From Lewinellaceae bacterium SD302 (GTDB lineage Bacteria; Bacteroidota; Bacteroidia; Chitinophagales; Saprospiraceae), in NCBI GenBank assembly GCA_002591745.1, contig PDLQ01000008.1, positions 124,001 through 188,000 of the forward strand: DNA of 64,000 nt. The letters are read 5' to 3'. The notes under the pieces were generated by a model. It was not told the DNA's origin and made no database searches. It worked only from the letters and a program-made list of their open reading frames with translations. The position numbers and the translations under genes were made by a program. Within the stretch, counting starts at the first letter, position 1. Every line of letters starts with the position of its first letter. Shown one piece after another: positions 919 to 63,832 of the stretch.

Positions 919-937
919 CATTGCTACTTTGCTAATC
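919..937 (-). repeat. CAAAGTAGCA-family repeat, single copy
   Basis: The decamer lies at 922-931 on the minus strand, 10 bp after the stop of the glucosaminidase-like gene. Flanks match the family consensus (TTAG before, ATGC after). One of 18 exact decamers in the window. Confidence 0.8.
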
Positions 938-1067
938 AAAATGGTTAATTCTAAGTTTATCCTCAGATTGTTAACCAAAATATAACATTATTAGCACAGC
1001 AATGATTGTAGTTACACGTTCACATTTTAGCATTGACCAACCAGCGCTACCCCATAAGACCAAATCG

Positions 1068-1274
1068 ATGCTTAGAGGAAAAATCGTTTTTTACGATCGT
1101 GATAAACGTCAGGGCTACGTGCGATTGCCTGAAACCAGAGAAGAGTTTCACTTTCGAATATCCGTCATTGATTCCGACGCCGGTATTGATGATAAGGCTT
1201 GGGTTCAATTTCGACTTCAAAGGGACCGGCGGGGTTATTTGGCAGTTGATTTGCAGCCGCTGTACCTTACCTAA
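1068..1274 (+). CDS. Small cold-shock/OB-fold-like protein
   Basis: A 68-aa protein beginning MLRGKIVFYDRDKRQGYVRL. The spacing GKI-x-FY-x5-GYV-R resembles the first strands of cold-shock (CSD) OB folds, which bind single-stranded nucleic acid, although the aromatic RNP residues are only partly kept. An upstream in-frame ATG at 1002 would add 22 residues that do not look like the domain, so the internal ATG was preferred. It stands alone between the glucosaminidase-like gene and a minus-strand microprotein. The fold is inferred from pattern only. Confidence 0.5.
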   Translation: MLRGKIVFYDRDKRQGYVRLPETREEFHFRISVIDSDAGIDDKAWVQFRLQRDRRGYLAVDLQPLYLT

Positions 1275-1280
1275 AGGTTA

Positions 1281-1397
1281 TTAATCCCGGTTGCGGCGAT
1301 TTTTGTTGCCTTGCCAACGCAGGAATAATAGGGCTAGCAGCAATAGTGCCACCAGTCCAAACATGGTTTCGTTACCGGCAAATAAGTTGGTATCCAT
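1281..1397 (-). CDS. 38-aa single-span membrane microprotein
   Basis: A short minus-strand reading frame encodes MDTNLFAGNETMFGLVALLL and then ALLFLRWQ and a basic tail GNKNRRNRD. This is the layout of a single-span membrane protein: acidic/polar N-terminus, about 15 hydrophobic residues, and a positively charged C-terminus that would stay in the cytoplasm. It is divergent from uvrA and convergent with the cold-shock-like gene. I do not recognise the family. Support is the sensible membrane topology and its fit in an otherwise empty gap; homologue conservation could not be tested. Confidence 0.45.
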   Translation of the reverse strand: MDTNLFAGNETMFGLVALLLLALLFLRWQGNKNRRNRD

Positions 1398-1478
1398 TCT
1401 TCAATAGTTATTCGGAGAAAAATACAAAACTACTTCTATACTTTTCAACACCACGCAGCGCCAAGCGTTAACAACTTT

Positions 1479-4349
1479 ATGGATATTCAGCCTAATGATG
1501 CCCCTTTGGAACAAGCCGGTCCCTCACCGGAAGATTTTATCGCCGTTACCGGTGCCAAAGAACACAACCTCAAAGATATAGATGTGCAATTGCCACGCAA
1601 TCAACTCGTGGTAATTACCGGGTTGAGTGGAAGTGGCAAATCAAGTCTGGCTTTTGATACTATTTATGCCGAAGGACAGCGTCGGTATATGGAAACCTTT
1701 AGTAGCTACGCTCGCCAGTTCATGGGTAGTATGGAACGGCCGGAGGTGGAACAGATCACCGGACTAAGCCCGGTCATCAGTATCGAGCAAAAGACAACCA
1801 ACCGCAGCCCTCGTTCCACGGTGGGTACCGTCACTGAGATTTATGATTTTCTGCGCCTACTCTACGCACGAGCAGGTACGGCTTACAGCCACATTAGTGG
1901 AAAACCGATGCTTCGTTATAACGAAGAGCAGATGAAAGATGAGATTGCCAAGCAGTACGATGGCAAGAAGATCAGTGTATTGGCTCCATTGGTACGCGGC
2001 CGAAAGGGACATTACCGCGAGCTATTTGAACAAATGCGTAAGCAAGGTTTTACGAAAGTGAGGGTAGACGGTGAGATCACTGAGCTGGTCCCTAAAATGC
2101 AGGTGGATCGCTACAAAGTTCACGACATCGAATTGGTTGTCGACCGCATAAAAATGAGTGAGGAGCGACGGGACCGGCTGAGTCAAAGCGCTCAGATCGC
2201 TCTGAAAATGGGAGATGGTCTGTTGTTTATCGCCGACCACGACGATAACGATGTGCGCCCTTTTTCCAAAAACCTGATGGATGCTGAAAACGGTATTTCC
2301 TACGAGGAGCCATCACCTAATTCCTTTTCCTTCAACTCACCCTATGGCTATTGTCCGAATTGTAAAGGGCTGGGTCAGGTGAATACGCCGGATATCGACA
2401 AAGTTATTCCTGACGAGAAGAAAAGTATAAATAAAGGAGGCATTGTGCCTTTGGGTGAAGGACGTGACAATACGACTTTCAAGCAGGTAAAAGACATTGC
2501 TAAGCGTTATAAATTCAAGCTCAGCGACCCGATCGAAAAGATTCCTAAAGAAGCTCTGGAGTTGATTCTTTACGGTAAGCAGGCGAAGAAAAAGAAAAAG
2601 TCACGTTACGATAAAGTAGCTCACGATCTTGTCTGGGATGTGGAAGCCCAGGGCTTGATGAATATGATCGTACGCTGGTATACCGAAACGACCAGTGAAC
2701 GCATCCGCCAATGGGCGGAAGATTTCATGACCATTGATGAATGTTCCGTCTGCGAAGGATCTCGCCTGCGGTTGGAATCACGCCACTTCAAAATCAAAGG
2801 AGCTGCCATTGGTGACCTGGCCCGGATGGACCTCAGTGAACTGGGCACCTGGCTGGAAACGGCCGAAGAAGGTATGGATGAGCGTACTGCCCTGATCGCC
2901 AAAGACATTTTAAAGGAGATTCGTTTCCGGCTACGCTTTTTGCTACACGTCGGTTTAGGGTATCTCAGTCTGGACCGTCCGGGCCGCTCACTATCCGGTG
3001 GCGAGGCTCAGCGGATTCGGCTAGCCACCCAGATTGGTTCCCAGTTGACGGGTATTACTTACATTCTGGATGAACCCAGTATCGGCTTGCATCAGCGAGA
3101 CAACATGCGACTGATCGAAGCACTCCGTCAATTAACGGATATTGGCAACACTGTGATTGTTGTGGAACACGACCGCGATATTATGGTCGCCAGCGATTAC
3201 CTGCTGGATCTAGGGCCCGGAGCCGGTAAACTCGGCGGTAAAGTCGTAGCCGAGGGTGTCCCAGAATCGTTCGATAAAAAATCTGGTATTACCGCTGATT
3301 ATTTGAGCGGCCGCAAATCTATCGAAGTGCCAAAAAGCCGCCGTAAGGGTAACGGTAACTTCCTGGAATTAAAAGGCGCAAATGGCAATAACCTTCAAAA
3401 GGTCAACATCAAAATTCCCCTGGGAACACTAACCTTGGTGACCGGTGTTTCCGGAAGCGGAAAATCCACCCTGATCAACGAAACGCTGTACCCCATTCTG
3501 CGACAGCACTTTTATAAAAGCATCAAGCGGCCGATGGAGTATAAATCCATCAAAGGGTTGGAACACGTGGATAAAGTGATCGATATCGATCAGTCGCCGA
3601 TCGGGCGGACACCCCGTTCTAATCCGGCAACTTATACCGGGCTTTTTACGGACATTCGTAGTCTGTTCAGTAACCTCCCGGAAGCCAAGATTCGGGGTTA
3701 CAAGCCCGGTCGTTTCAGCTTTAACGTAAAAGGCGGCCGCTGTGAAGAATGTAAGGGAAGTGGTAAACGCACCATCGAAATGAATTTCCTGCCCGATGTT
3801 TACGTAGAGTGTGAAACCTGCGGAGGCAAACGCTACAATCGGGAAACGCTGGAAATTCTGTATAAAGGGAAAAGCATCAACGATGTACTGGATATGCCGG
3901 TAAGCGAAGCCAGTGAATTCTTCGCCGCCATTCCCAAGATCAGCAGACGGTTGAAGACTCTGGCCAGCGTCGGTTTGGGTTACATTACCCTGGGTCAGCA
4001 AGCTACCACCCTGAGTGGAGGCGAAGCCCAACGCGTAAAACTGAGTGAGGAACTGAGTAAACGAGATACCGGCAACACTGTCTATATCCTGGATGAGCCA
4101 ACGACTGGATTACACTTCGAAGACATCAAGTATTTACTAAAAGTGCTTAATGGTCTGGTTGAGAAGGGTAACACTGTCATTGTCATTGAGCACACAATGG
4201 ACGTCATCAAAGTAGCCGACTACATTATAGACATGGGCCCGGAAGGAGGTAAAGGTGGTGGTAAGGTTGTAGCTAAAGGTAAGCCCGCTCAGGTCGCTAA
4301 AGTGGAGGAGAGCCATACCGGTAGGTTTTTGAAAGAGGAGTTGGCGTAG
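1479..4349 (+). CDS. uvrA: Excinuclease ABC subunit A
   Basis: UvrA, the damage-sensing ATPase of nucleotide excision repair, forms a dimer that loads UvrB on damaged DNA. The 956 aa contain two ABC ATPase modules: Walker A GLSGSGKSS at about 48-56 and GVSGSGKST near 655, and ABC signatures LSGGEAQR near 506 and 846. Zinc-binding Cys pairs are visible as CPNCKG (about 293), CSVCEG (about 424), CEECKG (about 755) and CETCGG (about 778). Length is usual for the family. Its partner uvrB lies in the same window at 54.4-56.4 kb on the other strand, so they are not an operon. An inverted pair of the CAAAGTAGCA repeat follows the stop codon. Confidence 0.97.
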   Translation: MDIQPNDAPLEQAGPSPEDFIAVTGAKEHNLKDIDVQLPRNQLVVITGLSGSGKSSLAFDTIYAEGQRRYMETFSSYARQFMGSMERPEVEQITGLSPVISIEQKTTNRSPRSTVGTVTEIYDFLRLLYARAGTAYSHISGKPMLRYNEEQMKDEIAKQYDGKKISVLAPLVRGRKGHYRELFEQMRKQGFTKVRVDGEITELVPKMQVDRYKVHDIELVVDRIKMSEERRDRLSQSAQIALKMGDGLLFIADHDDNDVRPFSKNLMDAENGISYEEPSPNSFSFNSPYGYCPNCKGLGQVNTPDIDKVIPDEKKSINKGGIVPLGEGRDNTTFKQVKDIAKRYKFKLSDPIEKIPKEALELILYGKQAKKKKKSRYDKVAHDLVWDVEAQGLMNMIVRWYTETTSERIRQWAEDFMTIDECSVCEGSRLRLESRHFKIKGAAIGDLARMDLSELGTWLETAEEGMDERTALIAKDILKEIRFRLRFLLHVGLGYLSLDRPGRSLSGGEAQRIRLATQIGSQLTGITYILDEPSIGLHQRDNMRLIEALRQLTDIGNTVIVVEHDRDIMVASDYLLDLGPGAGKLGGKVVAEGVPESFDKKSGITADYLSGRKSIEVPKSRRKGNGNFLELKGANGNNLQKVNIKIPLGTLTLVTGVSGSGKSTLINETLYPILRQHFYKSIKRPMEYKSIKGLEHVDKVIDIDQSPIGRTPRSNPATYTGLFTDIRSLFSNLPEAKIRGYKPGRFSFNVKGGRCEECKGSGKRTIEMNFLPDVYVECETCGGKRYNRETLEILYKGKSINDVLDMPVSEASEFFAAIPKISRRLKTLASVGLGYITLGQQATTLSGGEAQRVKLSEELSKRDTGNTVYILDEPTTGLHFEDIKYLLKVLNGLVEKGNTVIVIEHTMDVIKVADYIIDMGPEGGKGGGKVVAKGKPAQVAKVEESHTGRFLKEELA

Positions 4350-4355
4350 GTTCAA

Positions 4356-4441
4356 CAGGACTAACAAAGTAGCCATGTGTACGGGTTAAAGGGAGACTTT
4401 CTATATCCTGCAATTATCAATATTGCTACTTTGAAGTCCTG
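4356..4441. repeat. Inverted pair of CAAAGTAGCA elements after uvrA
   Basis: Left arm 4356-4376 and right arm 4422-4441 are complementary over CAGGACT plus the repeat core (left core CAAAGTAGCC, right core a perfect TGCTACTTTG at 4424-4433). The loop is about 45 bp. It lies between the ends of convergent uvrA and hemB, where a bidirectional terminator would be expected, but there is no clear T-tract. Confidence 0.75.
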
Positions 4442-4510
4442 CTGTAAAATTGAACTTATCCTGACATCCAGTCATTAGTTCTCGCACCACGAGACTTCAC
4501 CCCATTGCCT

Positions 4511-5512
4511 TCACTGTATCACCCCCTGTTGCCACCAGCTTGCGTAATCTTTGGCGAAGTAGGTAATGATCACGTCAGCGCCAGCCCGGCGGATACTGAC
4601 TAAAGCTTCCGTAGCAGCTTGTTGATAATCCAGCCAACCTCTTTCGGCGGCAGCTAATAACATGGCACATTCTCCACTGACGTGATAGGCGGCGATGGGT
4701 AGTTGCTGGCTTTCCCGCAAGCGGTAAATAATATCCAGGTAGTTGATCGCCGGTTTTACCATGAGGTAATCTGCCCCTTCAGCGACGTCGAGGGTGGCTT
4801 CCAGTAAAGCTTCCCGGGCATTTGCCGGGTCCATCTGGTAAGTTTTTTTATCGGTTGGAACGTCCTGTAATTGGCGTGGGGCACTGTCCAGGGCATCACG
4901 GAAGGGTCCGTAAAAGGCGCTGGCATATTTGGCGGTATAACTCATGATACCAACGTCAATATAACCGGCTGCATCCAGGGCGCGGCGCATGGATCCCACC
5001 CGTCCATCCATCATATCACTGGGGCCGAGGAGGTCGAAGCCGGCTTCCGCCTGAAGAACTGACATTTTATCCAGTAGTGGTAAAGTAGCATCGTTATCCA
5101 CTTTTCCGTTCAATACCAGTCCGTCATGTCCATCGCTACTATAGGGATCCAGGGCAATATCACTGATTAGGCATATATCGGGGTGCTCGGCTTTCAGGCG
5201 GCGGGCAGCTTCCAGATAAAAATTATCTTCCAGCCCATAGGTGCCCGTTTTGTCCTTGTTTTCTTCCGGCACGGCGGGGAACATGATGAAGCTGTTCAGG
5301 TTCAGCTTTCGGTATTGCTCCATTTCCCGTAGCACTTCCTCGATACCTAAACGGAAAGTTCCCGGCAAACTGCTTACCGGCAGGCGGGTGTCAGCCTCGG
5401 GCATCAGGAAGATAGGTTGGACCAAATGAGCGGGTGTCAATTCAGTTTCCCTTACCATGGCCCGCACGGCGGCGGAAGAGCGGTTTCGACGGGGTCGGCG
5501 AGTGATATTCAT
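4511..5512 (-). CDS. hemB: Porphobilinogen synthase (delta-aminolevulinic acid dehydratase)
   Basis: Condenses two 5-aminolevulinate molecules to porphobilinogen, the second step of tetrapyrrole synthesis, in the cytoplasm. The 333 aa match the family length. The two active-site lysines are visible in SYTAK (Lys195) and [10 protein letters not shown] (Lys253), and [11 protein letters not shown] is present. The metal loop reads [10 protein letters not shown] with Asp instead of Cys, which points to the magnesium-type rather than zinc-type enzyme. It overlaps yidD by four bases (ATGA), so the two are translated as an operon with yidD first. An AAAGTAGC octamer occurs inside the gene at 5082, without the extended repeat flanks. 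Confidence 0.96.
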
Positions 5513-5745
5513 AGTTTTTCTTCCTTCTTTTTAGGTACCGGATCGTAACCGGATTTTCCAAAGGGGTGACAACGCGCAATCCGTTTGGCGCCCAACCACG
5601 TACCTTTTAATACACCCCATTCTTCAATAGCCTCCAGCGCATACTGGGAACAAGTAGGCTGGAACCGACATTTGCTCGGACCTAACATGGGCGATATAGC
5701 CAATTGATAAAACCGAATGGGTAAAATGAAAAGCTTGCGTAGCAT
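5509..5745 (-). CDS. yidD: Membrane protein insertion efficiency factor YidD
   Basis: YidD is a small amphipathic protein that helps YidC insert membrane proteins. The 78 aa from the chosen ATG start [14 protein letters not shown], carry the diagnostic [13 protein letters not shown] with its conserved cysteines, and end with [13 protein letters not shown]. In-frame ATGs at 5751 and 5793 would add 2 or 16 residues not typical of the family. In many bacteria it sits with rpmH and rnpA; here it is instead 5' of hemB with ATGA overlap. Confidence 0.93.
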
Positions 5746-6095
5746 AGACATGGGAACAATTGTTTTTTTCAAAAGGATGTGACCGGCCGCCAAAAAGCCG
5801 TCACAAGGGTGAGTTTCGGGGGCACATTTTGCTTTCGTTTGACATTTTATCTACAGCACCACCGACTCCTCAATAATCCCAAGACTTGTTTCCTCCATAT
5901 TTCTTCCCCCCGTTGGGGAGGAAAAACACCGCTCGCGTGGTTTCTAACCCAAACAAAGTGAGCCGCGGCGCGTCCTTAACGGGCGCGTCGCTTTTTGATT
6001 TTGAAGCTAGCTGAAATTTCATAAGCTCGCGACCAGACCGGTACGATAATATTCGAGATTTCGCGACAATCGACTACTACATGGCCCGACCTTAT
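5746..6095. other. Intergenic region between yidD and the hppA terminator
   Basis: About 350 bp with no convincing gene; the only open frame (plus strand from 5779) is 60 codons long and looks random. It contains a GC-rich hairpin followed by a T-run (5965-5996, listed separately). Confidence 0.5.
5965..5996 (+). terminator. GC-rich hairpin with T-run, no obvious upstream gene
   Basis: Arms GCGGCGCGTCC (5965-5975) and GGGCGCGTCGC (5981-5991) pair with two G-T wobbles around a 5-nt loop, followed on the plus strand by CTTTTT. It has the form of an intrinsic terminator, but no recognisable plus-strand gene ends just before it. This could mark a small RNA or be a relic. Confidence 0.5.
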
Positions 6096-6130
6096 GAAAA
6101 AGCCCCGATTCCAAAATGGAACCAGGGCTT
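6096..6130 (-). terminator. Intrinsic terminator downstream of hppA
   Basis: Reading the minus strand, AAGCCC and GGGCTT arms plus an inner TTCC/GGAA pairing form a hairpin at 6100-6130, followed by a T-run (6096-6100 on the plus strand reads aaaaa). It lies about 50 bp after the hppA stop codon. Confidence 0.8.
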
Positions 6131-6182
6131 CTTTAATTTTTGTGACTCCGGCTAGGCCGGTCGTAAAAATTTAAGCTCAGTA

Positions 6183-8887: not shown

Positions 8888-9748
8888 TCAATTCGCAAAC
8901 AGCTTGGTAAACTTCTTTGCTACTTTGCTAGTCACCTCTATTTCCTCACTAGTGATTGGATGAATAAAACTCAACTGGTGGGCATGGAGGTAAAGTCCTT
9001 TACCTTTCAATACCAGTCCCTCGATGCCATATTTCTGGTCGCCGAGTATGGGGCAACCGAGTGCAGCCAAGTGGATTCGAAGTTGGTGACGACGGCCGGT
9101 AGCCGGAGAAAGACGCACCAGATTCAACCAGCCGAAACGAGGAGAGGACTGGCGGTCCAGCCGTTCGTAAGTGGAACTGGCCGGTTTCCCATCAATTGAT
9201 TGTTCCACATTTCCTCTCTCAGGAATTTCGCCAATGACCACGGCCAGATAGTTTTTTCGGATCATCCGCCTAGCAAAGAGTTCGCCCAGACGGGTGAGGC
9301 AACTCGCCGTTTTACCCACCACAACCAAGCCACTGGTGGCGTAATCGAGTCGATGAGCGGGCTGGGGATACACCAGCGCGTCCGTTTTTCGGCTGGGCGT
9401 AAGATTAGCAGGTAAGGCATTCGCCAAGGTCATCCACTTATTACCAGAGGTGAGTAAGCCGGCCGGTTTTTCCACCACGGCGAGGTGATCGTCTTCGAAA
9501 TGGACGGTTAGTTGCAGATTGGGCTTTTTGCTGTTGACTTCAATCGCGGGGAGAAGTAATTCGATCTGCTCTCCACCGTATAGCCAGTCTCCGGTGTATC
9601 CCACCCGCCCGTCGATGGATACGTGTCCCTTCTTGATCCTCTTTTTAATCCCTTTCCGGCTGGCCGCTATCGGGAAGATTCCGACGAGGTGATCGGATAG
9701 CCGCTCGGGGGTGGAGAGGGGCGGAACTTGATAATTCTCGTAGATCAA
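8888..9748 (-). CDS. RluA-family pseudouridine synthase
   Basis: Isomerises uridine to pseudouridine in rRNA or tRNA. The 286 aa have an N-terminal S4-like RNA-binding segment (SRKGIKKRIKKGHVSIDG, about 31-48) and the catalytic domain with HRLDYATSGLVVV, whose Asp is the conserved nucleophile, plus GRRHQLRIHLAALGCPILGD. Which RNA position is modified cannot be read from the sequence. The beta-barrel gene ends 2 bp before this start on the same strand, so the two are probably co-transcribed. A copy of CAAAGTAGCA lies inside its 3' end (8918-8927), encoding part of SKVAKK. Confidence 0.9.
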   Translation of the reverse strand: MIYENYQVPPLSTPERLSDHLVGIFPIAASRKGIKKRIKKGHVSIDGRVGYTGDWLYGGEQIELLLPAIEVNSKKPNLQLTVHFEDDHLAVVEKPAGLLTSGNKWMTLANALPANLTPSRKTDALVYPQPAHRLDYATSGLVVVGKTASCLTRLGELFARRMIRKNYLAVVIGEIPERGNVEQSIDGKPASSTYERLDRQSSPRFGWLNLVRLSPATGRRHQLRIHLAALGCPILGDQKYGIEGLVLKGKGLYLHAHQLSFIHPITSEEIEVTSKVAKKFTKLFAN

Positions 9749-10549: not shown

Positions 10550-11425
10550 ATGTATCGTTTAATTATCACTCTTTCAGTTCTGTCCTTGTTCATCGGATGT
10601 ACACCTAAGACAGTGAAAGATAATGTGGCTGATAATACAGGGGAGGAACGAAGCCAGAATAATGAAGATGATGGCTATCAAAGTAGCAGTGATCCCGGTG
10701 AAGCTCCATTAACAATCTCCCGTGAAAACACTAATGACGAACGGCCGGTAATGATGGGCCCGGCCGACCAATTACTCAAGAAAGCCCTGAATGCCCACGG
10801 GGGTGAACGCTACTTCCAGGCCGAATACGTATTTGCCTTTCGCAAAAAAGACTACCGTTTCAAGAACGATGGCAAAAACTACCGCTACGAAAGCACCAGC
10901 CAAAAGGATGGTTCCATGATCGTGGATGTACTGGAAAACGGTCAGTTCTCCCGCACTATCGATGGTCAGGCGACGAGACTGACGCCCAAGCAAATCGCCG
11001 CTGGCACGGAAAGCCTCAACTCCGTAATTTACTTTGCTACTTTGCCAGCCAAACTAACCGACCCGGCCGTGAATCTGGAACACGCCGGCCCACACATCAT
11101 TAAAGGCCAGCGTTACGAAACATTACAAGTTTCATTCGATGAAGAAGGCGGCGGTAACGACCACGACGACAACTTTCGCTACTGGATCAATGAGGAAACT
11201 GGCCGTATCGATTATTTGGCTTACGACTATACAGTCAACGGTGGCGGCGTACGTTTCCGTAGTGCTTACAACCCCAGGGTGGTTGACGGGATACTTTTTC
11301 AGGATTACGTGAATTATAAAGCACCGTTAGGTACTGACCTGAGTGAACTACCGATGCTCTATGCCTCTGGAAAATTAGAAGAACTATCCCGGATTGAAAC
11401 GGAAGACGTTGTTTCCCTTAATTGA
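10550..11425 (+). CDS. Lipoprotein of a DUF6503-like family
   Basis: The chosen ATG gives MYRLIITLSVLSLFIGC, a lipoprotein signal with the lipobox Cys at 17; the ATG at 10520 would only lengthen the signal. After a low-complexity Asn/Asp/Glu linker comes AHGGERYFQAEYVFAFRKKD, and later EEGGGNDHDD, YWINEETGRIDYLAYDY and GGGVRFRSAYNPR. I associate this pattern with Bacteroidota proteins grouped as DUF6503, possibly with a LolA/LolB-like lipid-handling fold (inference). It carries two exact CAAAGTAGCA decamers inside the coding region (10679 and 11035). Its stop overlaps the convergent T9SS gene by 8 bp. Confidence 0.7.
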   Translation: MYRLIITLSVLSLFIGCTPKTVKDNVADNTGEERSQNNEDDGYQSSSDPGEAPLTISRENTNDERPVMMGPADQLLKKALNAHGGERYFQAEYVFAFRKKDYRFKNDGKNYRYESTSQKDGSMIVDVLENGQFSRTIDGQATRLTPKQIAAGTESLNSVIYFATLPAKLTDPAVNLEHAGPHIIKGQRYETLQVSFDEEGGGNDHDDNFRYWINEETGRIDYLAYDYTVNGGGVRFRSAYNPRVVDGILFQDYVNYKAPLGTDLSELPMLYASGKLEELSRIETEDVVSLN

Positions 11426-24716: not shown

Positions 24717-25291
24717 AATGAGTCCTAATAGTTTCTTTTTATAAAATTTCTTTTTCCCCCTTTATTATTATTAGGGCTGTGGAAATGGGGAAAGAGCATT
24801 CTGCTTTTACTTGGCTAATCCAACTTCCCCAATCGAACCTGAATTGTGCACATTTAAAACCCGGTTTTCCACGGCATCCATCAGTTTTGTCCAACCGTTC
24901 GCAAAAGGCCTCGGCCATTAGTAAACATTGCTACTTTGCTAACCATTTGAATCCATAAAGTGGGGTATTCAATCAAAGTCCGGCAAAATTATCCACGCGG
25001 CGGCTGATAATTGTCAACGGAATAACTTTTTGGCATTTCATAGTGGGAATTTGACCCCAGACTGTCAATAGCCGGCGGAAATCACCCCGTGGAAAACTGT
25101 GGAAAAGTGGATAAGCACCCCTTGGCGATCACCCTCTGTGGAATAACGTGGAAAACCATAAGCTTTTAAACAGTTATTAACAGACGGACCGTTGAAAAGC
25201 CAGTTTTGTAAACTCTTGATTAACTGAATGTTTACAAAAGCGTAATTCTTCTAATGTTTATAAGTTTCCAGCTATTCGAGTCCGTAACGAC
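24717..25291. other. oriC: Candidate replication-origin region with DnaA-box cluster
   Basis: A 575-bp gap without a gene. DnaA-box-like nonamers: TTTTCCACG (24865-24873), TTATCCACG (24989-24997), CGTGGAAAA (25088-25096), TGTGGAAAA (25098-25106), AGTGGATAA (25106-25114), TGTGGAATA (25137-25145) and CGTGGAAAA (25147-25155); five fall within 68 bp. AT-rich tracts flank the cluster at about 24735-24773 and 25160-25265, as expected for an unwinding element. The parS pair is 7.5 kb away. Suggestive, not proven: no dnaA, dnaN or gyrB is in the window. Confidence 0.5.
24926..24944 (-). repeat. CAAAGTAGCA-family repeat, single copy in the candidate origin
   Basis: Exact decamer on the minus strand at 24929-24938 with flanks GGTTAG and ATG, inside the DnaA-box-rich gap. 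Confidence 0.8.
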
Positions 25292-29369: not shown

Positions 29370-29417
29370 AACAAAGTAGCAGGGCGGATGGGATATATCA
29401 AAGTTTGCTACTTTGAT
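29370..29417. repeat. Inverted pair of CAAAGTAGCA elements after the 474-aa gene
   Basis: Exact decamers at 29372-29381 (plus) and 29406-29415 (minus). The second also forms its own dyad ATCAAAGT/ACTTTGAT around a 5-nt loop. Located 16 bp after the stop codon; a terminator role is plausible. Confidence 0.78.
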
Positions 29418-33337: not shown

Positions 33338-35743
33338 ATGGATGATATCCAAAAACTGTACGCAAGCTATCGGGGTTTCGACCTCCTGGTAGACAGCCGG
33401 CTACTGAACGAAGCTGAGCGGACGCTCTTTTTCGCTCTGCCCGGTGCGCGGACGGACGGTCACGAATACATAACGGAACTCCTTCGCCAGGGTGTACAAC
33501 ACTTTGTGGTGCGGGAGGAATACTGGATCAGGACCTTCGAACAACCGGAGCGGGTGGAAGAACTCTCGCTCTACACTCAAGCAACCTTCATTGCGGTGGA
33601 TGATGTTTTAGAGATTCTCCATGATTTGGTTACTTATCACCGCAAGCAGTTCGCCGGTCGGGTGATCGCCATCACGGGTAGCAATGGAAAAACCATCGTC
33701 AAGGACTGGTTGACGGCACTACTGAGTACCATTCACCGAGTACACGCCAGCCCCCGCTCCTACAACTCTCAGATTGGAGTACCCCTCTCCGTTTGGGGGA
33801 TTAAAGATCATCACGAAATCGCCGTCATCGAAGCGGGGGTTTCCAGGGCCGGGGAAATGGAAAAACTGGCGAGGATCATCCAGCCGACTCACGGCATTTT
33901 CACCAACCTGGGGGAAGCCCACGCAGCGGGCTTCGGGAGTCGCGAGGAGAAGCTTAGAGAAAAAATAGGCCTCTTCGAAACCACCGAATGGACGCTTTTC
34001 AGTCGTATGGATGAACTTGTCCTTACTGAGGCTCGTGATTACCATCCTCACCCCGAAACCTGGTGGTTGGAAGATGACCAACTGAAAAGTTCGGTTTTTG
34101 AGAAGAGTATTGACATCAGCAAGCTGCCGGTGTTGCCCGAAATTTTTCGCCAGGATGCACTAATGGCCGTTGCTGCCGCCAGGGCGTTCGGGGTAACACA
34201 AGCGGGAATAGACGATGTGCTTCCCACTTTTCGACCCCTGGAGATGCGTCTTCGGGTGCGGGCTGGCCGTAATGGTTCTTCTATCATAAACGACAGCTAC
34301 AGTAATGACCTGACCAGTTTGGCAGCGGCCCTTGATTTTGCCCAGACCCAAGCTCCGTTGGAACGACTGACCGTAATCCTTAGTGATTTGGCGGAGACGG
34401 GCGTCGAGCCGGAAACGACCTATGCAAGAGTAGCTCAATTGTTACGTGGCAAAACGTGGCGGGTAATCGGAGTTGGTCCGGAGATCAAGTTACTGGCCGG
34501 TCTTTTAATACCGGATAAAATTGAGTTTCATTACTATCAAAGTAGCAATGCTTTAGCTGACGACCTCGATCAATTCAGCTTTCGCGACGAAACGATTTTA
34601 CTGAAAGGTGCCCGTTCTTTTGCCTTGGAAAAACTGGTGGATAAACTAACCAGTCGCCGCCATCGTACGCTACTGGAGATCGATTTGGATGCCATCGCCC
34701 ACAACCTGAATGTTTACCGCCACCAGTTACCGGTTGAAACTGGCCTGGCAGTCATGGTCAAGGCGTCGGCCTATGGGTCGGGCAGCATACAAGTCGCCCG
34801 GTTGCTGGCCGAGGCAGGAGTAGACTACCTCATCGTAGCTTACACCGACGAAGGAATCGCTCTGCGTGAAGTAGGTATCGAAACGCCGATCATGGTCCTC
34901 AACCCGGAAAGTGGAGAGTATCCGTTATTAGCGGAACATAAATTGGAACCAGTCGTAACGAATTTACGGGCGTTAGAAAAGATACTGGCCAATCACCCGG
35001 GCCTGCCCCTGCACCTGGAATTTGATACCGGGATGGGCAGATTAGGTTTCAACCAATCCGAGGTAGAGGGAATAGTCCGTTTGTTAAAAACTTCCGGTCA
35101 ATCTCCCCGATCTGTTTTCACCCATTTGGCGGCCAGTGATGATTTCGCCCACGACGAGTTTACCCGTCAACAGCTCAGTCGCTTTTCCATTATCGATACG
35201 GAACTGAGACGTAATGAGTTGGATGCACCGCTGCGCCACGTATTGAATACCAATGGGATCAGCCGTTTTCCGGAAGCCACCTATGAAATGGTTAGATTGG
35301 GTATAGGATTGTACGGTCTCGGAGACCGGGAGAAAATCATGAAATTACGCCCGGCTCTTCGGCTTAAAGCAGCGATCAGTGGACTGCGGAAGATCGAAAA
35401 GGACAACATCACCGTAGGCTACGGACGAAAGGGCAGGGCAACGATAGGAAGTACGATCGCCACGGTCAGTATTGGTTACGCGGATGGACTGCCACGGCTG
35501 GCGGGAGAAGGCCGCTACGGGCTTTTGGTGAAAGGTAAAGTTGCCCCCATCGTTGGTGCCGTTTGTATGGATATGTGTATGATCGACGTGACGAAAATCC
35601 CGGAGGTTGCGATTGGTGATGAGGTGATCGTCTTTGGCCCCCAACACTCTATTGAAGCCCTGGCTGATGCAGCAATAACTATTCCTTATGAGATACTTAC
35701 GGGAGTTGGCGCGCGGGTCCATCGTTTGTACGTACGGGAATAG
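33338..35743 (+). CDS. murF-alr: Fused MurF ligase and alanine racemase
   Basis: One 801-aa protein with two peptidoglycan-precursor activities. Residues 1 to about 440 are the MurF-like ligase, which adds D-Ala-D-Ala to UDP-MurNAc-tripeptide: ATP loop ITGSNGKTIVKDW (about 111), AVIEAGVSRAGEM and INDSYSNDLTSLAAAL. Residues from about 445 are alanine racemase: LLEIDLDAIAHNL, the PLP lysine in MVKASAYGSG (about 473) and the second catalytic Tyr in VGYGRKGRA. The fusion is known from Bacteroidota. An exact CAAAGTAGCA (34538-34547) lies between the two domains, encoding part of YYQSSNALA. Confidence 0.96.
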   Translation: MDDIQKLYASYRGFDLLVDSRLLNEAERTLFFALPGARTDGHEYITELLRQGVQHFVVREEYWIRTFEQPERVEELSLYTQATFIAVDDVLEILHDLVTYHRKQFAGRVIAITGSNGKTIVKDWLTALLSTIHRVHASPRSYNSQIGVPLSVWGIKDHHEIAVIEAGVSRAGEMEKLARIIQPTHGIFTNLGEAHAAGFGSREEKLREKIGLFETTEWTLFSRMDELVLTEARDYHPHPETWWLEDDQLKSSVFEKSIDISKLPVLPEIFRQDALMAVAAARAFGVTQAGIDDVLPTFRPLEMRLRVRAGRNGSSIINDSYSNDLTSLAAALDFAQTQAPLERLTVILSDLAETGVEPETTYARVAQLLRGKTWRVIGVGPEIKLLAGLLIPDKIEFHYYQSSNALADDLDQFSFRDETILLKGARSFALEKLVDKLTSRRHRTLLEIDLDAIAHNLNVYRHQLPVETGLAVMVKASAYGSGSIQVARLLAEAGVDYLIVAYTDEGIALREVGIETPIMVLNPESGEYPLLAEHKLEPVVTNLRALEKILANHPGLPLHLEFDTGMGRLGFNQSEVEGIVRLLKTSGQSPRSVFTHLAASDDFAHDEFTRQQLSRFSIIDTELRRNELDAPLRHVLNTNGISRFPEATYEMVRLGIGLYGLGDREKIMKLRPALRLKAAISGLRKIEKDNITVGYGRKGRATIGSTIATVSIGYADGLPRLAGEGRYGLLVKGKVAPIVGAVCMDMCMIDVTKIPEVAIGDEVIVFGPQHSIEALADAAITIPYEILTGVGARVHRLYVRE

Positions 35744-39472: not shown

Positions 39473-39490
39473 TCTAACAAAGTAGCAATG
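39473..39490 (+). repeat. CAAAGTAGCA-family repeat, single copy
   Basis: GTCTAACAAAGTAGCAATGC with the exact decamer at 39478-39487, about 60 bp after the PNGase-like gene and close to the end of the convergent 39549 gene. Confidence 0.8.
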
Positions 39491-44140: not shown

Positions 44141-44157
44141 GGCTAACAAAGTAGCAA
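44141..44157 (+). repeat. CAAAGTAGCA-family repeat, single copy
   Basis: GGCTAACAAAGTAGCAAAG with exact decamer 44147-44156, between the AsmA-like start and nadA. Confidence 0.8.
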
Positions 44158-46809: not shown

Positions 46810-48009
46810 TTATAATAATCGTAAGTATACCGACTTCAAATAATTACCCTCCCGGAAAGTAGCGGGATGATCAAGATCATGATGAGTACGCTCAATGACC
46901 TCATAAGGCCGGCCGATCTCAGTGAGCACGGCGTGCTGTAAGGCGAAAAAAGTATCGGCATCAACCCGGGCGGAGCAAGAAGCAGCCAGTAGAATTCCTC
47001 CCTTGGCCACCAGGGGCACGGTCAGCTTAGTTAGCCTGCGGTAGGCTTTAAGAGCACCTTCTATTTCATTTTCACTCTTGGCAAAGGACGGTGGGTCACA
47101 AACAACCAGGTCGTAAGTCATTCTCCGCTGAGCCAACTTATCCAGGACTTCAAAGGCATCTCCGGAAAGGGTTTGAAAATTATCGGTGGCGGGAAAGTTG
47201 AGGGCTACGTTTTCCCGGGCTACACTCAGAGCTTGCTCACTGATGTCCAAAGCTGTTACCTCATTGGCACCACCACCCAGGGCGTGGACGGAAAATCCAC
47301 CGGCGTAGCTGAAGATATCCAGCACGGACTTGCCCTCGGCCAGTTCGCCGACGCGTTTGCGGTTATGGCGATGATCAAGGAAGAATCCGGTTTTGTGACC
47401 CTGCAGGACATTGGCTTTGAGTAAAATGCCGTGTTCCCGAAAGACGATTTCCTCATCCTCTAATTGACCTTGCAGAATAATGCCGTCTTCCCAATCTGCG
47501 GGTTTGTCAGTAGCGCCGGCTACGCGTCTGCTAAGTCGAAGAACCACTGTTTTACAGTCGGAAACTTTCAGTAATTCTTCCAGGATCGCCTTCAGCCAGG
47601 GTGCCCAGATGAGGCTATAGACCTTAATGACCAGTACGTGGGCGTAGACATCAGCAATCAACCCGGGGAAACCGTCACTTTCTCCATTGAGCAGGCGGTA
47701 GCTGTTCGTTTCGGTAGCCAACAGATTTTCTCTTAGCGCCCTGGCCACTGCTACTTTGTTAGCCCAAAAACTTTGATCCACCTTGGCCGGACTGCCCTGG
47801 TGTAAAACCTTGATGCGAATTGGTGAATCCGGATCGTAGAGACCCAGGCCGATGAAGCGGTCTTTGCGGCGGTCAAAAATAATGGCCAGGTCGCCACTCT
47901 TTCCTTCTCCCTTCATGCGCTCAATGGCTTGGTCGTATAACCAGGGATGGCCGCTGCGGAGATGGCGTTCGCCGACGGCGGTAAGGCGGGTGGCTAATCG
48001 GTTTGGAAT
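46810..48009 (-). CDS. RlmI-type 23S rRNA methyltransferase, unusual start
   Basis: A class I SAM-dependent methyltransferase with N-terminal PUA domain that methylates a cytosine C5 in 23S rRNA. SAM site VLDIFSYAGGFSVHALGGGA and the catalytic-region CDPPSFAKSE are clear. The first ATG (47916) begins in the middle of the PUA domain; the frame continues upstream for 31 codons with typical PUA sequence (VGERHLRSGHPWLYDQAIER) until an in-frame TAG at 48013-48015. The only plausible start there is ATT at 48007-48009 (399 aa). Either a rare ATT start is used or the true start has been lost to the adjacent repeat array. Confidence 0.85.
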   Translation of the reverse strand: MPNRLATRLTAVGERHLRSGHPWLYDQAIERMKGEGKSGDLAIIFDRRKDRFIGLGLYDPDSPIRIKVLHQGSPAKVDQSFWANKVAVARALRENLLATETNSYRLLNGESDGFPGLIADVYAHVLVIKVYSLIWAPWLKAILEELLKVSDCKTVVLRLSRRVAGATDKPADWEDGIILQGQLEDEEIVFREHGILLKANVLQGHKTGFFLDHRHNRKRVGELAEGKSVLDIFSYAGGFSVHALGGGANEVTALDISEQALSVARENVALNFPATDNFQTLSGDAFEVLDKLAQRRMTYDLVVCDPPSFAKSENEIEGALKAYRRLTKLTVPLVAKGGILLAASCSARVDADTFFALQHAVLTEIGRPYEVIERTHHDLDHPATFREGNYLKSVYLRLL

Positions 48010-49603: not shown

Positions 49604-49622
49604 GCTAACAAAGTAGCAGTGC
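49604..49622 (+). repeat. CAAAGTAGCA-family repeat, single copy
   Basis: GCTAACAAAGTAGCAGTGCT with exact decamer 49609-49618, in the 265-bp gap between divergent ugd and the patatin gene. Confidence 0.8.
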
Positions 49623-56510: not shown

Positions 56511-56641
56511 GGCATTGCTACTTTGTTAGCCAAACAAGCTCGTAGAATATAGATGCCAGACAAGATGCGTACATATTGAGGCTGAGTCTATTTTCTATAC
56601 TCTATCATCCATGCTCTTTGGTCTAACAAAGTAGCAGTGCC
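56511..56641. repeat. Inverted pair of CAAAGTAGCA elements between uvrB and the 1494-aa gene
   Basis: GGCATTGCTACTTTGTTAGC (56511-56530) pairs with the element at 56620-56641 (GTCTAACAAAGTAGCAGTGC) with two mismatches over about 21 bp. Loop about 90 bp. Exact decamers at 56516-56525 and 56627-56636. Unlike the other pairs it lies between divergent genes, so it is not a shared terminator. The 304-bp gap holds no other gene. Confidence 0.8.
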
Positions 56642-56678: not shown

Positions 56679-56686
56679 TAAATTTG
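56679..56686 (+). promoter_or_regulatory. Bacteroidota -7 promoter element (TAAATTTG)
   Basis: Exact TAnnTTTG match 37 bp upstream of the 1494-aa gene ATG, giving a leader of about 30 nt. Confidence 0.5.
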
Positions 56687-56723
56687 ACACAGCCTTACCC
56701 CACACCACTTTCAATCTAGACAC

Positions 56724-61208: not shown

Positions 61209-61232
61209 CAGAGGCGCGAGCTCATAATCAGA

Positions 61233-61323
61233 CACTGCTACTTTGTTAGCCAGAAAGACAAGCATAGACATCGGACAATTCCAATCGCTTGTTTAGGGGC
61301 TTATGACTAACAAAGTAGCAATG
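61233..61323. repeat. Inverted pair of CAAAGTAGCA elements after the 1494-aa gene
   Basis: CACTGCTACTTTGTTAGCC (61233-61251) and GACTAACAAAGTAGCAATG (61305-61323) pair around a ~53-bp loop, 25 bp after the stop codon. A further GCAATGCTT/AAGCATTGC hairpin begins in the second copy (61317-61349). Confidence 0.8.
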
Positions 61324-61443
61324 CTTTGCTATCGTCTGAAGCATTGCTTTCGAAGGAATAAAACACTTTAACGAAAAAAATATATTTTCAAAAAAGTGGA
61401 ATCGGCCAATCTCATTCGGTATTGGGGTATAACTGTCTCGTAA

Positions 61444-62166
61444 ATGAGCATATTAAAGCCCTATGAAGCGCCCTCTGGCGGGATTAAGTCCTGGCACGAA
61501 GACGAGCGCCCCCGTGAGAAATTACAAGCTGCGGGGGCCGCTCGGCTTAGTTTGGCTGAACTGCTGGGGATCCTCATTGGTTCCGGTCACGCGGAGGCTA
61601 CCGCAATTGAAGTGGGTCGGGAGATTCTGCGGGCCGCTGATTACGACCTCCACACCCTTGCCCGCTGGCAGCCGGCTGATTTTTGCCGTTTTAAAGGGAT
61701 CGGCCCGGCCCGCGCCGTTACCCTGACCGCCGCCATGGAACTGACGCGCCGCCGGGAAAATCAACGCTTCCGGCCGGATACTCCGCTGATGAATAGCCAG
61801 GATACCTACCAGTACCTCCGTAGTATCCTGGGAGACCTGGAGCACGAGGAATGTTGGCTTGTATGCCTGAGTCAGTCCAACCGGGTACTGGCCACCCATT
61901 TGATCAGTCGCGGCGGTATCACTGGTACCGTAGTGGATGCCCGGGTAGTTTTTCGCCACGCCGTCAATACCGCTCGTTGCGTCAGTCTGATCCTGGCCCA
62001 CAATCACCCCAGTGGTAACCGCCACCCCAGCCCGGCGGATATTCAACTGACCCGTAAACTGGCCACGGCGGCCCGTCACGTTGACTTTACCTTACAAGAC
62101 CACTTGATCGTTACCCAGAGTACTTACTTCAGTTTTGCCGACGAAGGCATGTTGGGGATTGATTGA
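61444..62166 (+). CDS. radC: RadC/JAB-domain protein
   Basis: 240 aa. N-terminal helix-hairpin-helix region (GAARLSLAELLGILIGSGHA, FCRFKGIGPARAVTLTAAME) and the C-terminal JAMM metalloprotease-like domain with LILAHNHPSGNRHPSPADIQ holding the metal ligands. The historic DNA-repair role is doubtful; the biochemical function is unknown. Confidence 0.94.
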   Translation: MSILKPYEAPSGGIKSWHEDERPREKLQAAGAARLSLAELLGILIGSGHAEATAIEVGREILRAADYDLHTLARWQPADFCRFKGIGPARAVTLTAAMELTRRRENQRFRPDTPLMNSQDTYQYLRSILGDLEHEECWLVCLSQSNRVLATHLISRGGITGTVVDARVVFRHAVNTARCVSLILAHNHPSGNRHPSPADIQLTRKLATAARHVDFTLQDHLIVTQSTYFSFADEGMLGID

Positions 62167-62186
62167 AAGACCGTAGCTTATGTAAT

Positions 62187-62366
62187 ATGAAATGGATAAA
62201 AGTTTTGAGGAATACCTTGATTTTCGCCATTGGTTATTTGGCCCTGGGTATGGTGTTCGAGTATTTTTCCAGCGATGTGGATTTTTCAAAAGGCAGAATC
62301 GCGAGGGATTCATTAATTGGTGTGATCGTCGGCTTTTTGGTGGCACTAAGGCATCGGAACGGATAG
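62187..62366 (+). CDS. Small two-span membrane protein
   Basis: 59 aa from MKWIKVLRNTLIFAIGYLAL, with a second hydrophobic segment DSLIGVIVGFLVAL and a basic end RHRNG. It starts 20 bp after radC on the same strand. Unknown function; topology and position support a real gene. Confidence 0.5.
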   Translation: MKWIKVLRNTLIFAIGYLALGMVFEYFSSDVDFSKGRIARDSLIGVIVGFLVALRHRNG

Positions 62367-62371
62367 CTTGG

Positions 62372-63832
62372 TTACTCCCATTTCATGCTTCCAAAAATTG
62401 CTAACGTTCTCTTTCGACCGTCTTTATCCACAGTCTGGAAACTACGCAAGTGCTCTAACTCCGAATGCTCATTTAACATTTCCAAACTCACTTTTCCCTC
62501 TATCTCTGCGTACCAATCGTCCCAGATCACGAGGCTGTTTTCCGGGAAGGGTTGACTTATAGAAGCTTTCGTGAGGACGCGGTGACTGGTTGGGTCAAAG
62601 GGGTCACGCTCCAGGACCATACTCATCGGTGGATAGTAATAGCTGGTAAATTGGTAAGTGGAATAATCCTTGCGGATAAACTCAGCGACCTCCTGCGCCA
62701 TTTTTTGGGGAGCTTTTAACCGGAAGTCTCGGGGGAACTGTACGGAGTATTTTGAAGTGGAATACAGAAAGACTACTACGGTGAGTATGACCACGATATT
62801 GGCAATACGCTTTCCTTTTGCTCCGAACTTGGCCAGTTTCCAGAGTGATTGGGTGCCGGTTAGTGCTACGACGGCGATATAGGGCGCAATCGTCAACATA
62901 TTCCGCGTCAGCCCGAAAGATTTGAACAATCCGAATTTCCAGAAAATAGTGTGGGCACCAATCACGCTGAATACGCCGGCCAGTAGAAAAGCTGGAATTA
63001 AGTGTCGCCGCAGTTCTTTGATCCGTTGCAGTAGCGGAATCGTGATGGCCAGAACACCTACCCAAAAAAACACGTAGATGGGGATGCCGAGAATATTGAG
63101 CAAGCCCTTAATGTAGTGAATCCAGGTACCGGTCTTACCATAGGTGGGAGCCAAAGCAATATTAGGATTCTTCGCAAAAACCCAATTCCAGCTTTGTTCG
63201 AAAAAGAGAGTACCGAACAGTGTGTAAAACAAGTGACCAAATAATAGCAGTGGGATATACCGCAGCCACTCCCGTCGAAGCATAAAATAAACGGCGGCCA
63301 GGGCAAGGAAGAACAAACCCTCCGGCCGCACGAAGGGCATAAATGAGAAGACCAGTGCCGCTAGGGTATTGCGCTCTCTGGCCAGCAGGAAAAGTCCCGC
63401 AATGGCCATAAAGGAAAACATCGGCTCGGTTAGTCCGGAAAGACTTAGTTGCAAATAGTGGGGCATGCACAACAAGAGCGGCATCGCTAGTTCCGCATTC
63501 GGGACCTTCATTTGCCTTGCTACTTTGAAGGCCAGAAATCCAGATCCGATCGCCATGATCGAATTGAAGAACTTAACGCCAATAAAGCCGAACCGGGAAA
63601 AGGGAGCTGCCAGCAAAGTATAAAAAGGCCGCGCCCAGGAATTGATCAACAACTCCGGATAATCAAAGACGTACTTGTTGTGAATGTAATGATTGACGCT
63701 GTCGCCATCATCTCCCGTACCATCCATAAAAAACAGCAAGATTGCTTGCTGAATGATGATCAGCCCGAGCCAGATGGAAACGCGGTATCTGGCGTAGAAA
63801 TTTGAGGGATTTCTTATTTTTAAGGGCGGCAT
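62372..63832 (-). CDS. GT-C type membrane glycosyltransferase
   Basis: 486 aa with about ten membrane spans, an early acidic motif GTGDDGDSVNHYIHN after span 1 and PELLINSWARPFYTLLAAPF in the first large loop, as in mannosyltransferases of the GT-C fold. Later LSGLTEPMFSFMAIAGL and FMPFVRPEGLFFLAL. Substrate unknown. An exact CAAAGTAGCA (63518-63527) lies inside, encoding part of FKVARQMK. Confidence 0.72.
   Translation of the reverse strand: MPPLKIRNPSNFYARYRVSIWLGLIIIQQAILLFFMDGTGDDGDSVNHYIHNKYVFDYPELLINSWARPFYTLLAAPFSRFGFIGVKFFNSIMAIGSGFLAFKVARQMKVPNAELAMPLLLCMPHYLQLSLSGLTEPMFSFMAIAGLFLLARERNTLAALVFSFMPFVRPEGLFFLALAAVYFMLRREWLRYIPLLLFGHLFYTLFGTLFFEQSWNWVFAKNPNIALAPTYGKTGTWIHYIKGLLNILGIPIYVFFWVGVLAITIPLLQRIKELRRHLIPAFLLAGVFSVIGAHTIFWKFGLFKSFGLTRNMLTIAPYIAVVALTGTQSLWKLAKFGAKGKRIANIVVILTVVVFLYSTSKYSVQFPRDFRLKAPQKMAQEVAEFIRKDYSTYQFTSYYYPPMSMVLERDPFDPTSHRVLTKASISQPFPENSLVIWDDWYAEIEGKVSLEMLNEHSELEHLRSFQTVDKDGRKRTLAIFGSMKWE

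What the first reader, a model, noticed from the sequence alone, without database searches (positions are those of the whole stretch)
919..63527. A dense, genome-signature-like 10-mer: CAAAGTAGCA occurs 18 times in 64 kb
Exact copies on either strand start at 922, 4424, 8918, 10679, 11035, 24929, 29372, 29406, 34538, 39478, 44147, 47749, 49609, 56516, 56627, 61236, 61311 and 63518. With equal base use about 0.12 would be expected. Twelve copies are intergenic, although genes fill nearly all of the window, and most of these extend to CTAACAAAGTAGCARTGC. The core has a small dyad (GCTA-ACAAAG-TAGC). Coding copies are read in different frames (SKVAKK, YQSSS, YQSSN, FATLP on the complement), so a shared peptide does not explain them. 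The pattern resembles DNA uptake sequences of Neisseria and Haemophilus, or a nucleoid/segregation motif. I know of no such element described for this group.
Basis: partly seen in the sequence, partly recalled or inferred. Interest (0 to 1): 0.88.

Follow-up and report, generated by a model that had tools for sequence, protein, structure and literature searches.

The report
Uptake-sequence-like DNA signature in Bacteroidota
This bacterium's genome is stamped more than a thousand times with a short DNA word laid out like the "self" tags that other bacteria use to recognise their own DNA, and its relatives carry their own different versions of such a tag.

Summary
The whole genome has 1344 (669/675; reversed control 16); 20 congeners have 1-12 each. 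In a 2.06 Mb sample (536 copies) it sits in a ~20 bp consensus, ~TTTTGGCTANCAAAGTAGCARTG, about 9-fold denser between genes. Coding copies align ungapped with homologues lacking it in 11 of the 13 cases that could be checked. Two copies on the SAME strand are almost never close (47 pairs under 3 kb, ~200 expected); opposite-strand copies are only weakly affected. True uptake sequences (Aggregatibacter segnis) show a weaker, shorter version of this; E. coli Chi does not. Each of the 20 congeners has other motifs over control, mostly dialects of GCACCNGCGNCCGCGCC (up to 982 copies; 1 copy in 39 genomes of other genera). Best reading: a self-recognition (uptake-sequence-like) signal with dialects, in a phylum where my searches found none described. 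No convincing type IV pilus ATPase. A DUF5689 protein, the domain of a Riemerella competence factor, is in this genome and in none of the 20 congeners. DNA uptake itself is untested.

The parts
922..931 (-). motif copy, intergenic (after gene 429-911)
4424..4433 (-). motif copy, intergenic, convergent spacer
8918..8927 (-). motif copy in coding DNA, sense, in a pseudouridine synthase gene (PF00849)
10679..10688 (+). motif copy in coding DNA, sense, DUF6503 gene
11035..11044 (-). motif copy in coding DNA, antisense, same DUF6503 gene
24929..24938 (-). motif copy, intergenic
29372..29381 (+). motif copy, intergenic, inverted pair with 29406
29406..29415 (-). motif copy, intergenic, inverted pair with 29372
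34538..34547 (+). motif copy in coding DNA, sense, Mur ligase-alanine racemase fusion gene
39478..39487 (+). motif copy, intergenic, full CTAACAAAGTAGCARTGC
44147..44156 (+). motif copy, intergenic
47749..47758 (-). motif copy in coding DNA, sense, SAM-dependent methyltransferase gene
49609..49618 (+). motif copy, intergenic, full CTAACAAAGTAGCARTGC
56516..56525 (-). motif copy, intergenic between uvrB and a divergent gene, full CTAACAAAGTAGCARTGC, inverted pair with 56627
56627..56636 (+). motif copy, intergenic, full CTAACAAAGTAGCARTGC, inverted pair with 56516
61236..61245 (-). motif copy, intergenic, inverted pair with 61311
61311..61320 (+). motif copy, intergenic, full CTAACAAAGTAGCARTGC, inverted pair with 61236
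63518..63527 (-). motif copy in coding DNA, sense, gene 62372-63727 (no Pfam hit)

Best explanation
CAAAGTAGCA (consensus ~TTTTGGCTANCAAAGTAGCARTG) is a self-recognition sequence of the DNA-uptake-sequence kind. SHOWN: very high copy number, strand balance, intergenic enrichment, origin mainly by base substitution (small test), strand-specific spacing, and different iterated motifs in the 20 congeners. INFERRED: during natural transformation a receptor or processing step accepts DNA carrying at least one copy on the strand that is read, so copies accumulate by transformation-coupled drive. A second copy on the same strand within the transferred piece (about 3 kb) adds nothing and decays, while a copy on the other strand is not a substitute. 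INFERRED: outer-membrane uptake does not use type IV pili but a Bacteroidota route like the one proposed for Riemerella (surface DUF5689 protein, barrel, ComEC). A change of the reader protein between this species and its congeners would have changed the motif.
For: 1344 copies against 16 for the reversed word; 20 congeners 1-12 each. The 13-mer CAAAGTAGCARNG occurs 1222 times here and at most 8 times in each of 397 other genomes of the family. Same-strand pairs under 3 kb: 47 observed, ~200 expected; opposite strand at 500-3000 bp: 134 observed, ~173 expected. The same-strand deficit holds for intergenic-intergenic, mixed and coding-coding pairs; 200 control 7-mers (of 620 with similar counts) have same-strand fraction 0.53 +/- 0.04, minimum 0.45, against 0.21 for the motif (motif, controls). 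True USS in Aggregatibacter segnis: same strand under 500 bp 17 observed, 42.6 expected; opposite strand at 50-600 bp, leaving out terminator pairs, 41 observed, 47.2 expected. Of 221 coding copies, 13 had a homologue aligned across the site; 11 of 13 (18 of 24 alignments) are ungapped. Congeners carry other dialects, with the same same-strand gap (G019 + strand: 66 sites, minimum spacing 3299 bp, 0 under 3 kb, 12.5 expected). ComEC is present in G000 and all 12 congeners searched. DUF5689, a domain of an R. anatipestifer protein essential for transformation (PMC8459023, passages read), is in G000 and in 0 of 20 congeners. Neisserial DUS also have dialects that follow phylogeny (PMC3630211, abstract read) and spacing that matches conversion fragments (PMC2397512, passages read).
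Against: No transformation or binding data for this genus turned up in my paper searches. No convincing type IV pilus ATPase, and every confirmed uptake sequence that I recall is read by a pilus component. H. influenzae uptake is reported not to depend on USS orientation (PMC1939737, passages read), so same-strand-only exclusion is not a textbook prediction. My USS control differs in degree: the A. segnis deficit reaches only ~0.5 kb, and its sites are not more even than random overall (same-strand CV 1.01 against 0.62 here). DUF5689 is a single contrast (one genome against 20), is not specific to competence (the control search also rings in B. subtilis), and orthology to the Riemerella protein was not tested. 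ComEC in all genomes does not explain which species has which motif. Opposite-strand copies are mildly depleted too (45 observed, 68.7 expected at 2-3 kb), mostly the divergent ones. The motif is confined to one species in the held set.
Confidence: 0.6

Rival explanations
1. A Chi-like signal: a helicase-nuclease resecting broken or incoming DNA reads the motif on one strand and switches from degradation to recombination. The second same-strand site it meets is redundant; opposite-strand sites serve the other direction.
For: Explains same-strand-only redundancy over a few kb directly.
Against: E. coli Chi shows no same-strand deficit (28 observed, 22.2 expected under 2 kb) and is strongly strand-skewed (61:15) in 350 kb; this motif is not skewed in any of 15 stretches of 19-360 kb (smallest p 0.29). 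Known Chi sites are 5-8 nt (recalled); here ~15-20 positions are constrained and the motif differs wholly between G000 and its congeners. One Chi system was tested; others might behave differently.
Confidence: 0.15
2. A directional DNA-transfer or packaging signal (for example for a gene transfer agent or phage-like packaging) distributed over the chromosome.
For: Strand-specific spacing on the scale of a small capsid; two viral contigs with phage tail genes, and others with the same flank, carry the congeners' motif.
Against: Independent starts would add up rather than be redundant, so strong exclusion is not expected (reasoning, not tested); no packaging gene was linked to the motif, and I did not search for one in G000.
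Confidence: 0.08
3. Binding sites of a nucleoid, segregation or regulatory protein.
For: Intergenic enrichment (315 of 536 copies in 14% of the sequence) and a sharp core.
Against: Orientation is nearly neutral to genes (121 sense, 100 antisense; tandem spacers 77 vs 96), 41% of copies are coding, there is no strand skew, and nothing predicts same-strand exclusion.
Confidence: 0.1
4. A REP/MITE-like mobile repeat.
For: High copy number and inverted pairs; the single Y1 transposase-like hit of the genome lies ~140 bp from a motif copy.
Against: Coding copies arise without insertion in 11 of 13 testable cases; flanks are degenerate rather than copied; Y1_Tnp is not enriched (1 hit against 1-7 in 12 congeners).
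Confidence: 0.03

Closest known systems
Neisseriaceae DNA uptake sequence (DUS) and its dialects
   Same: Over 1000 short oriented copies per genome, both strands, close inverted pairs, species dialects (dialects following phylogeny: PMC3630211, abstract read; inverted repeats: PMC2397512, passages read).
   Different: No convincing type IV pilus ATPase here; different phylum; exclusion is nearly confined to the same strand and ~3 kb long; one species uses a motif with no obvious relation to its congeners'.
Pasteurellaceae uptake signal sequence (USS)
   Same: A ~10 bp core with extended weak flanks (recalled for USS); same-strand local depletion also present in A. segnis.
   Different: USS exclusion reaches only ~0.5 kb and is weaker (17 observed, 42.6 expected under 500 bp); overall A. 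segnis sites are not evenly spaced (same-strand CV 1.01).
Chi sites of RecBCD/AddAB
   Same: Strand-specific signal with kb-scale spacing.
   Different: Shorter (recalled), strand-skewed and without same-strand exclusion in the E. coli control.
Riemerella anatipestifer competence (ComEC, DprA, DUF5689 protein, outer-membrane barrel)
   Same: ComEC present; a DUF5689 protein in G000.
   Different: Neither 'uptake sequence' nor 'type IV pili' occurs in the one Riemerella paper I searched (PMC8459023); congeners lack DUF5689.

Membership tests
DNA uptake sequence (DUS/USS) | Short motif over-represented genome-wide far beyond chance | tested here: met
   1344 vs 16 reversed control
DNA uptake sequence (DUS/USS) | Both strands equally used, no fixed orientation to genes | tested here: met
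   669/675; balanced within each of 15 stretches; 121 sense, 100 antisense
DNA uptake sequence (DUS/USS) | Copies arise by substitution in permissive sites, not by insertion | tested here: met
   13 of 221 coding copies had a homologue aligned across the site; 11 of 13 ungapped in at least one, 2 of 13 gapped in all
DNA uptake sequence (DUS/USS) | Even spacing (reported for USS by Karlin et al., as cited in PMC1939737) | tested here: met
   variance 2.4 against mean 5.0 per 20 kb; same-strand CV 0.62. My own USS control was not even overall (CV 1.01), so this row discriminates little
DNA uptake sequence (DUS/USS) | Related species carry dialects | tested here: met
   each of 20 congeners has at least one of three probes over its reversed control, best probe 105 to 982 copies; that G000's motif belongs to the same series is inferred
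DNA uptake sequence (DUS/USS) | Type IV pilus with a DNA-binding minor pilin | tested here: not met
   PF00437: two weak partial hits in G000; the best just reaches the cut-off (24.9 bits, 83 of 370 positions, in a 946-aa frame), with like hits in 11 of 12 congeners. Pilins were not searched
DNA uptake sequence (DUS/USS) | ComEC channel | tested here: met
   PF03772 in G000 and 12 of 12 congeners searched
DNA uptake sequence (DUS/USS) | Motif raises DNA uptake or transformation in the species | not testable with these tools
   needs a culture
Chi site | Strand skew along a replichore | tested here: not met
   no skew in any of 15 stretches of 19-360 kb; replichores were not mapped
Chi site | Read by AddAB/RecBCD | not tested
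   -
REP/RAYT element | Amplified with a RAYT-type Y1 transposase | tested here: not met
   1 PF01797 hit in G000 against 1-7 in 12 congeners

The most novel reading that the evidence does not exclude
A self-DNA recognition system in Bacteroidota that needs no type IV pilus and reads its signal on one DNA strand only. Clades of the genus have their own dialects, and a swap of the surface reader (a DUF5689 protein in this species, something else in the other 20) changed the motif wholesale. It would be the first uptake-sequence system outside Neisseriaceae and Pasteurellaceae that I know of.
Probability: 0.4. Interest if true: 0.9.

Novelty: new variant of a known kind. Interest (0 to 1): 0.8.

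Why it matters
Uptake sequences are described from Pasteurellaceae and Neisseriaceae (PMC7811141, search listing), two proteobacterial families that use pili. A third, independent case in Bacteroidota, with about 20 species and several dialects inside one genus, would allow the reader protein to be found by matching proteins to dialects. The same-strand exclusion is a quantitative clue to how such signals are read and why they accumulate; a weaker form of it is visible in the one pasteurellacean genome I tested.

Tried and rejected
Promoter/UTR element: rejected, orientation to genes is near neutral. Terminator: rejected, convergent spacers are the poorest class (29 copies in 43 kb against 109 in 76 kb of divergent spacer). 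Phage-borne element for the G000 motif: 18 viral contig stretches with one copy each, which I judge to be chance level (my estimate, no null computed). The G000 motif elsewhere: 0 hits for the 20-mer GGCTAACAAAGTAGCARTGC in genome contigs, where the window's own genome may be left out. Dyad as the conserved feature: rejected. A first word control (150 8-mers) was faulty because nearly all its words were pieces of the motif; replaced. Candidate words in single congeners were mostly tandem repeats; only GGCACCCGCG led on. G001's dialect was not found in its 32 kb but showed in a whole-genome count (501 copies). A convergent-over-divergent excess of opposite-strand pairs (108 vs 61 at 200-3000 bp, p 0.0004) is unexplained; it could be gene structure or a true direction effect. 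One UvrB tree (20 of 21 genomes, G003 lacking) does not settle whether G000 is basal.
Full report
OBSERVATION. My gene calls put 12 between genes and 6 inside. In the whole genome (5.48 Mb, 147 contigs) the 10-mer occurs 669 + 675 times against 7 + 9 for the reversed word. Of 59 other genomes, the 20 congeners have 1-12 copies; the 16 of the family and 23 of the order have up to 38 (in an 11.2 Mb genome whose reversed control is 15). The 13-mer CAAAGTAGCARNG occurs 603 + 619 times here and at most 8 times in each of 397 other genomes of the family. So the motif is genome-wide and, in the set searched, confined to this one species.

ANATOMY. Around the invariant ten bases, aligned copies show a T-rich stretch (-12 to -6), G(G/A)C(T/C), two loose positions, the core, then RTG and Y (223 copies in 864 kb; 808 looser sites in 2.06 Mb). 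The core is sharp: among copies with the outer flanks, single-base variants number 0 to 7 per base against 113 exact (864 kb); without the flank requirement there are 226 one-mismatch words beside 536 exact ones in 2.06 Mb, chance matches included.

PLACEMENT. In 2.06 Mb (536 copies), 315 are intergenic in the 14% of sequence outside my gene calls and 221 coding, about nine times denser between genes. Orientation is nearly neutral: 121 sense and 100 antisense in genes; in tandem spacers 77 co-oriented and 96 against. Convergent spacers are the poorest class, so terminators are not the purpose. No stretch is strand-skewed: 15 of 15 stretches of 19-360 kb are balanced (smallest p 0.29). Frames are those that avoid a stop: sense frame 1, which would read TAG, has 1 of 221.

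ORIGIN OF COPIES. I compared the proteins of the 221 coding copies with the congener DNA in hand (about half a megabase). Thirteen had a homologue aligned across the site. In 11 of these at least one homologue aligns without a gap over the motif codons, with other residues there (18 of 24 alignments); in 2 every alignment had a gap (alignments, counts). Some are weak homologues (30-40% identity). Copies therefore arise mainly by base substitution, which argues against REP or MITE insertion; the RAYT-type family is not enriched either.

STRAND-SPECIFIC SPACING. Copies are more even than random (variance 2.4 against mean 5.0 per 20 kb in 1.66 Mb). The striking part is that mainly same-strand copies exclude each other: under 3 kb 47 same-strand pairs against ~200 expected (Poisson about 2e-40 with the slightly different expectation), reaching expectation from 4 kb. 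Opposite-strand pairs at 500-3000 bp are 134 against ~173, and under 500 bp they are in excess, 91 against ~35. The same-strand deficit holds for intergenic-intergenic (11 same, 54 opposite, 200-3000 bp), mixed (23, 65) and coding-coding (10, 50) pairs and is gone at 4-12 kb. Two hundred other words of similar number (of 620) give a same-strand fraction of 0.53 +/- 0.04, minimum 0.45, against 0.21 for the motif (motif, words). Within opposite-strand pairs, convergent ones outnumber divergent ones (108 to 61 at 200-3000 bp); I cannot explain this.

CONTROLS WITH KNOWN SIGNALS. In 400 kb of Aggregatibacter segnis the true USS (263 copies of AAAGTGCGGT) shows a same-strand deficit under 500 bp (17 observed, 42.6 expected). 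On the opposite strand terminator-like pairs under 50 bp give an excess (32 against 4.4), and at 50-600 bp there are 41 against 47.2. Overall these USS are not more even than random (same-strand CV 1.01; the motif here 0.62). In 350 kb of E. coli K-12, 76 Chi sites show no same-strand deficit (28 observed, 22.2 expected under 2 kb) and a 61:15 skew. The motif thus resembles an uptake sequence more than Chi, but with a much longer and stronger exclusion than USS. Each control is one genome.

DIALECTS IN THE GENUS. A dispersed word in congener DNA, GGCACCCGCG, is present 404-514 times in G012, G016 and G019, with 9 copies in G000 (control 9). Read together, the congeners share GCACCNGCGNCCGCGCC or variants of it: G006 982, G018 865, G005 853, G019 668, G014 646, G003 605, G002 548, G008 415, down to G007 13, G000 4 and G001 0, with reversed controls of 0-4. 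The 39 genomes of other genera have one copy in all. G001 and G007, sister species in the UvrB tree, carry instead GCGCNCCGNCGCC 501 and 568 times (controls 10 and 13). G013 uses CACCNGCGNCAGCG and G011 CACCNGCGNCCCCG in small samples. Every congener has at least one of the three probes over control, the best being 105 (G011) to 982 copies; in G+C-rich genomes the reversed word is an imperfect control, so the low counts (G004, G009, G011, G015, G017) are the weakest part. The same exclusion is visible there: pooled congeners have 4 same-strand pairs under 2 kb against 15.9 expected and 20 opposite against 15.9 (79 sites of GCACCNGCGNNC); G019 has no two sites on the + strand of contig 1 within 3 kb where 12.5 are expected (66 listed sites). 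G000's motif shares with the others a pyrimidine-rich flank, a first G, a loose sixth position and a similar length, but not the letters; that it is the same system with another reader is inference.

MACHINERY. Type IV pilus or type II secretion ATPases were not convincingly found: PF00437 gives two partial hits in G000, the best just at the cut-off (24.9 bits, 83 of 370 positions, in a 946-aa frame, which by its size may be UvrA: my inference), and like hits in 11 of 12 congeners, whereas G041 of another family has a full-length one (E 8e-123). Pilins and secretins were not searched. ComEC is in G000 and in all 12 congeners searched; DprA was not searched. In Riemerella anatipestifer (Bacteroidota) transformation needs ComEC, DprA, a DUF5689 protein predicted to lie in the fimbrium and, in the authors' speculative model, to bind DNA, and an outer-membrane barrel (PMC8459023, passages read). 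G000 has one 708-aa frame with three DUF5689 stretches (best E 1.5e-53); none of the 20 congeners has any, while G021, G022 and G024 of other genera in the family do. The family is not specific to competence (it also rings in B. subtilis) and orthology is untested. It is one contrast, but of the kind that a change of reader would leave.

MECHANISM. The least forced account is OR-logic on one strand: a piece of DNA a few kb long is accepted if the strand that is read carries at least one copy. New copies then spread by transformation only where no same-strand copy is near. Uptake sequences are argued to spread by such a drive (PMC1939737, passages), and neisserial spacing matches conversion fragments (PMC2397512, passages). 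What is new is the strand rule. Strand reading would fit recognition at or after the step where DNA becomes single-stranded, but that is inference, and H. influenzae uptake was reported to be independent of USS orientation (PMC1939737, passages). A Chi-like reader makes the same spacing prediction and is the main rival; length, lack of skew and the E. coli control speak against it.

KNOWN OR NEW. Paper searches found no uptake sequence described for Bacteroidota: 'DNA uptake sequence' + Bacteroidetes + natural transformation, 3 papers, none on this by title; 'uptake signal sequence' + Bacteroidetes, 1 unrelated by title; Saprospiraceae + natural competence, 0; Lewinella + natural transformation, 0; natural transformation + Bacteroidota + competence + type IV pili, 4 unrelated by title. 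The library holds only open-licence papers.

VERDICT. A real, genome-wide, strand-spaced self-signature, most likely one of several dialects in its genus and an uptake-sequence system of a new variant; uptake itself is unproven.

Noticed in passing
L362, L337, L335, L342, L343, L351, L356, L357, L361, L364, L373, L393 (viral contigs): IMG/VR contigs carry the congeners' motif (GCACCNGCGNCCGCGCC, most with a pyrimidine-rich flank); L362 has a tape-measure gene and L337 a tail-fibre/collagen gene (PHROGs). L351, L356, L357, L361 and L362 have two same-strand copies 3.58 kb apart and may be one phage or prophage family.
   Followed up: partly
G000 C59:8019-8415: The only Y1 transposase-like hit of the genome (242-aa frame) lies ~140 bp from a motif copy.
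   Followed up: no
864 kb sample of G000; G016 100 kb sample: A second enriched palindromic word, (G)GTGTACACC: TGTACACC 50 copies against 11 expected in G000, GGTGTACACC 6 against 0.28 in G016 (both strands counted, so a palindrome counts twice).
   Followed up: no
window 56516 flank; 864 kb sample: AGAGCTTGTTTG occurs 14 times against 0.05 expected; the related GAGCTTGTTTGG runs into the motif at 56516; possibly a longer local repeat.
   Followed up: no
864 kb sample of G000: AATGATCTAATG (17 copies against 0.11 expected) and TCATTAGATCAT (14 against 0.10) are further unexplained iterated words.
   Followed up: no
window 29466, ~49650: A few copies of a related longer form, CGATCAGCGAAGCTAAAGTAG (3 in 864 kb), with TAAAGTAG in place of CAAAGTAG.
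   Followed up: partly
window 33338-35743: Mur ligase and alanine racemase domains fused in one protein.
   Followed up: no
G000 sample, 200-3000 bp pairs: Convergent motif pairs exceed divergent ones 108 to 61 (p 0.0004), strongest between intergenic copies at 200-1000 bp (23 to 4).
   Followed up: partly
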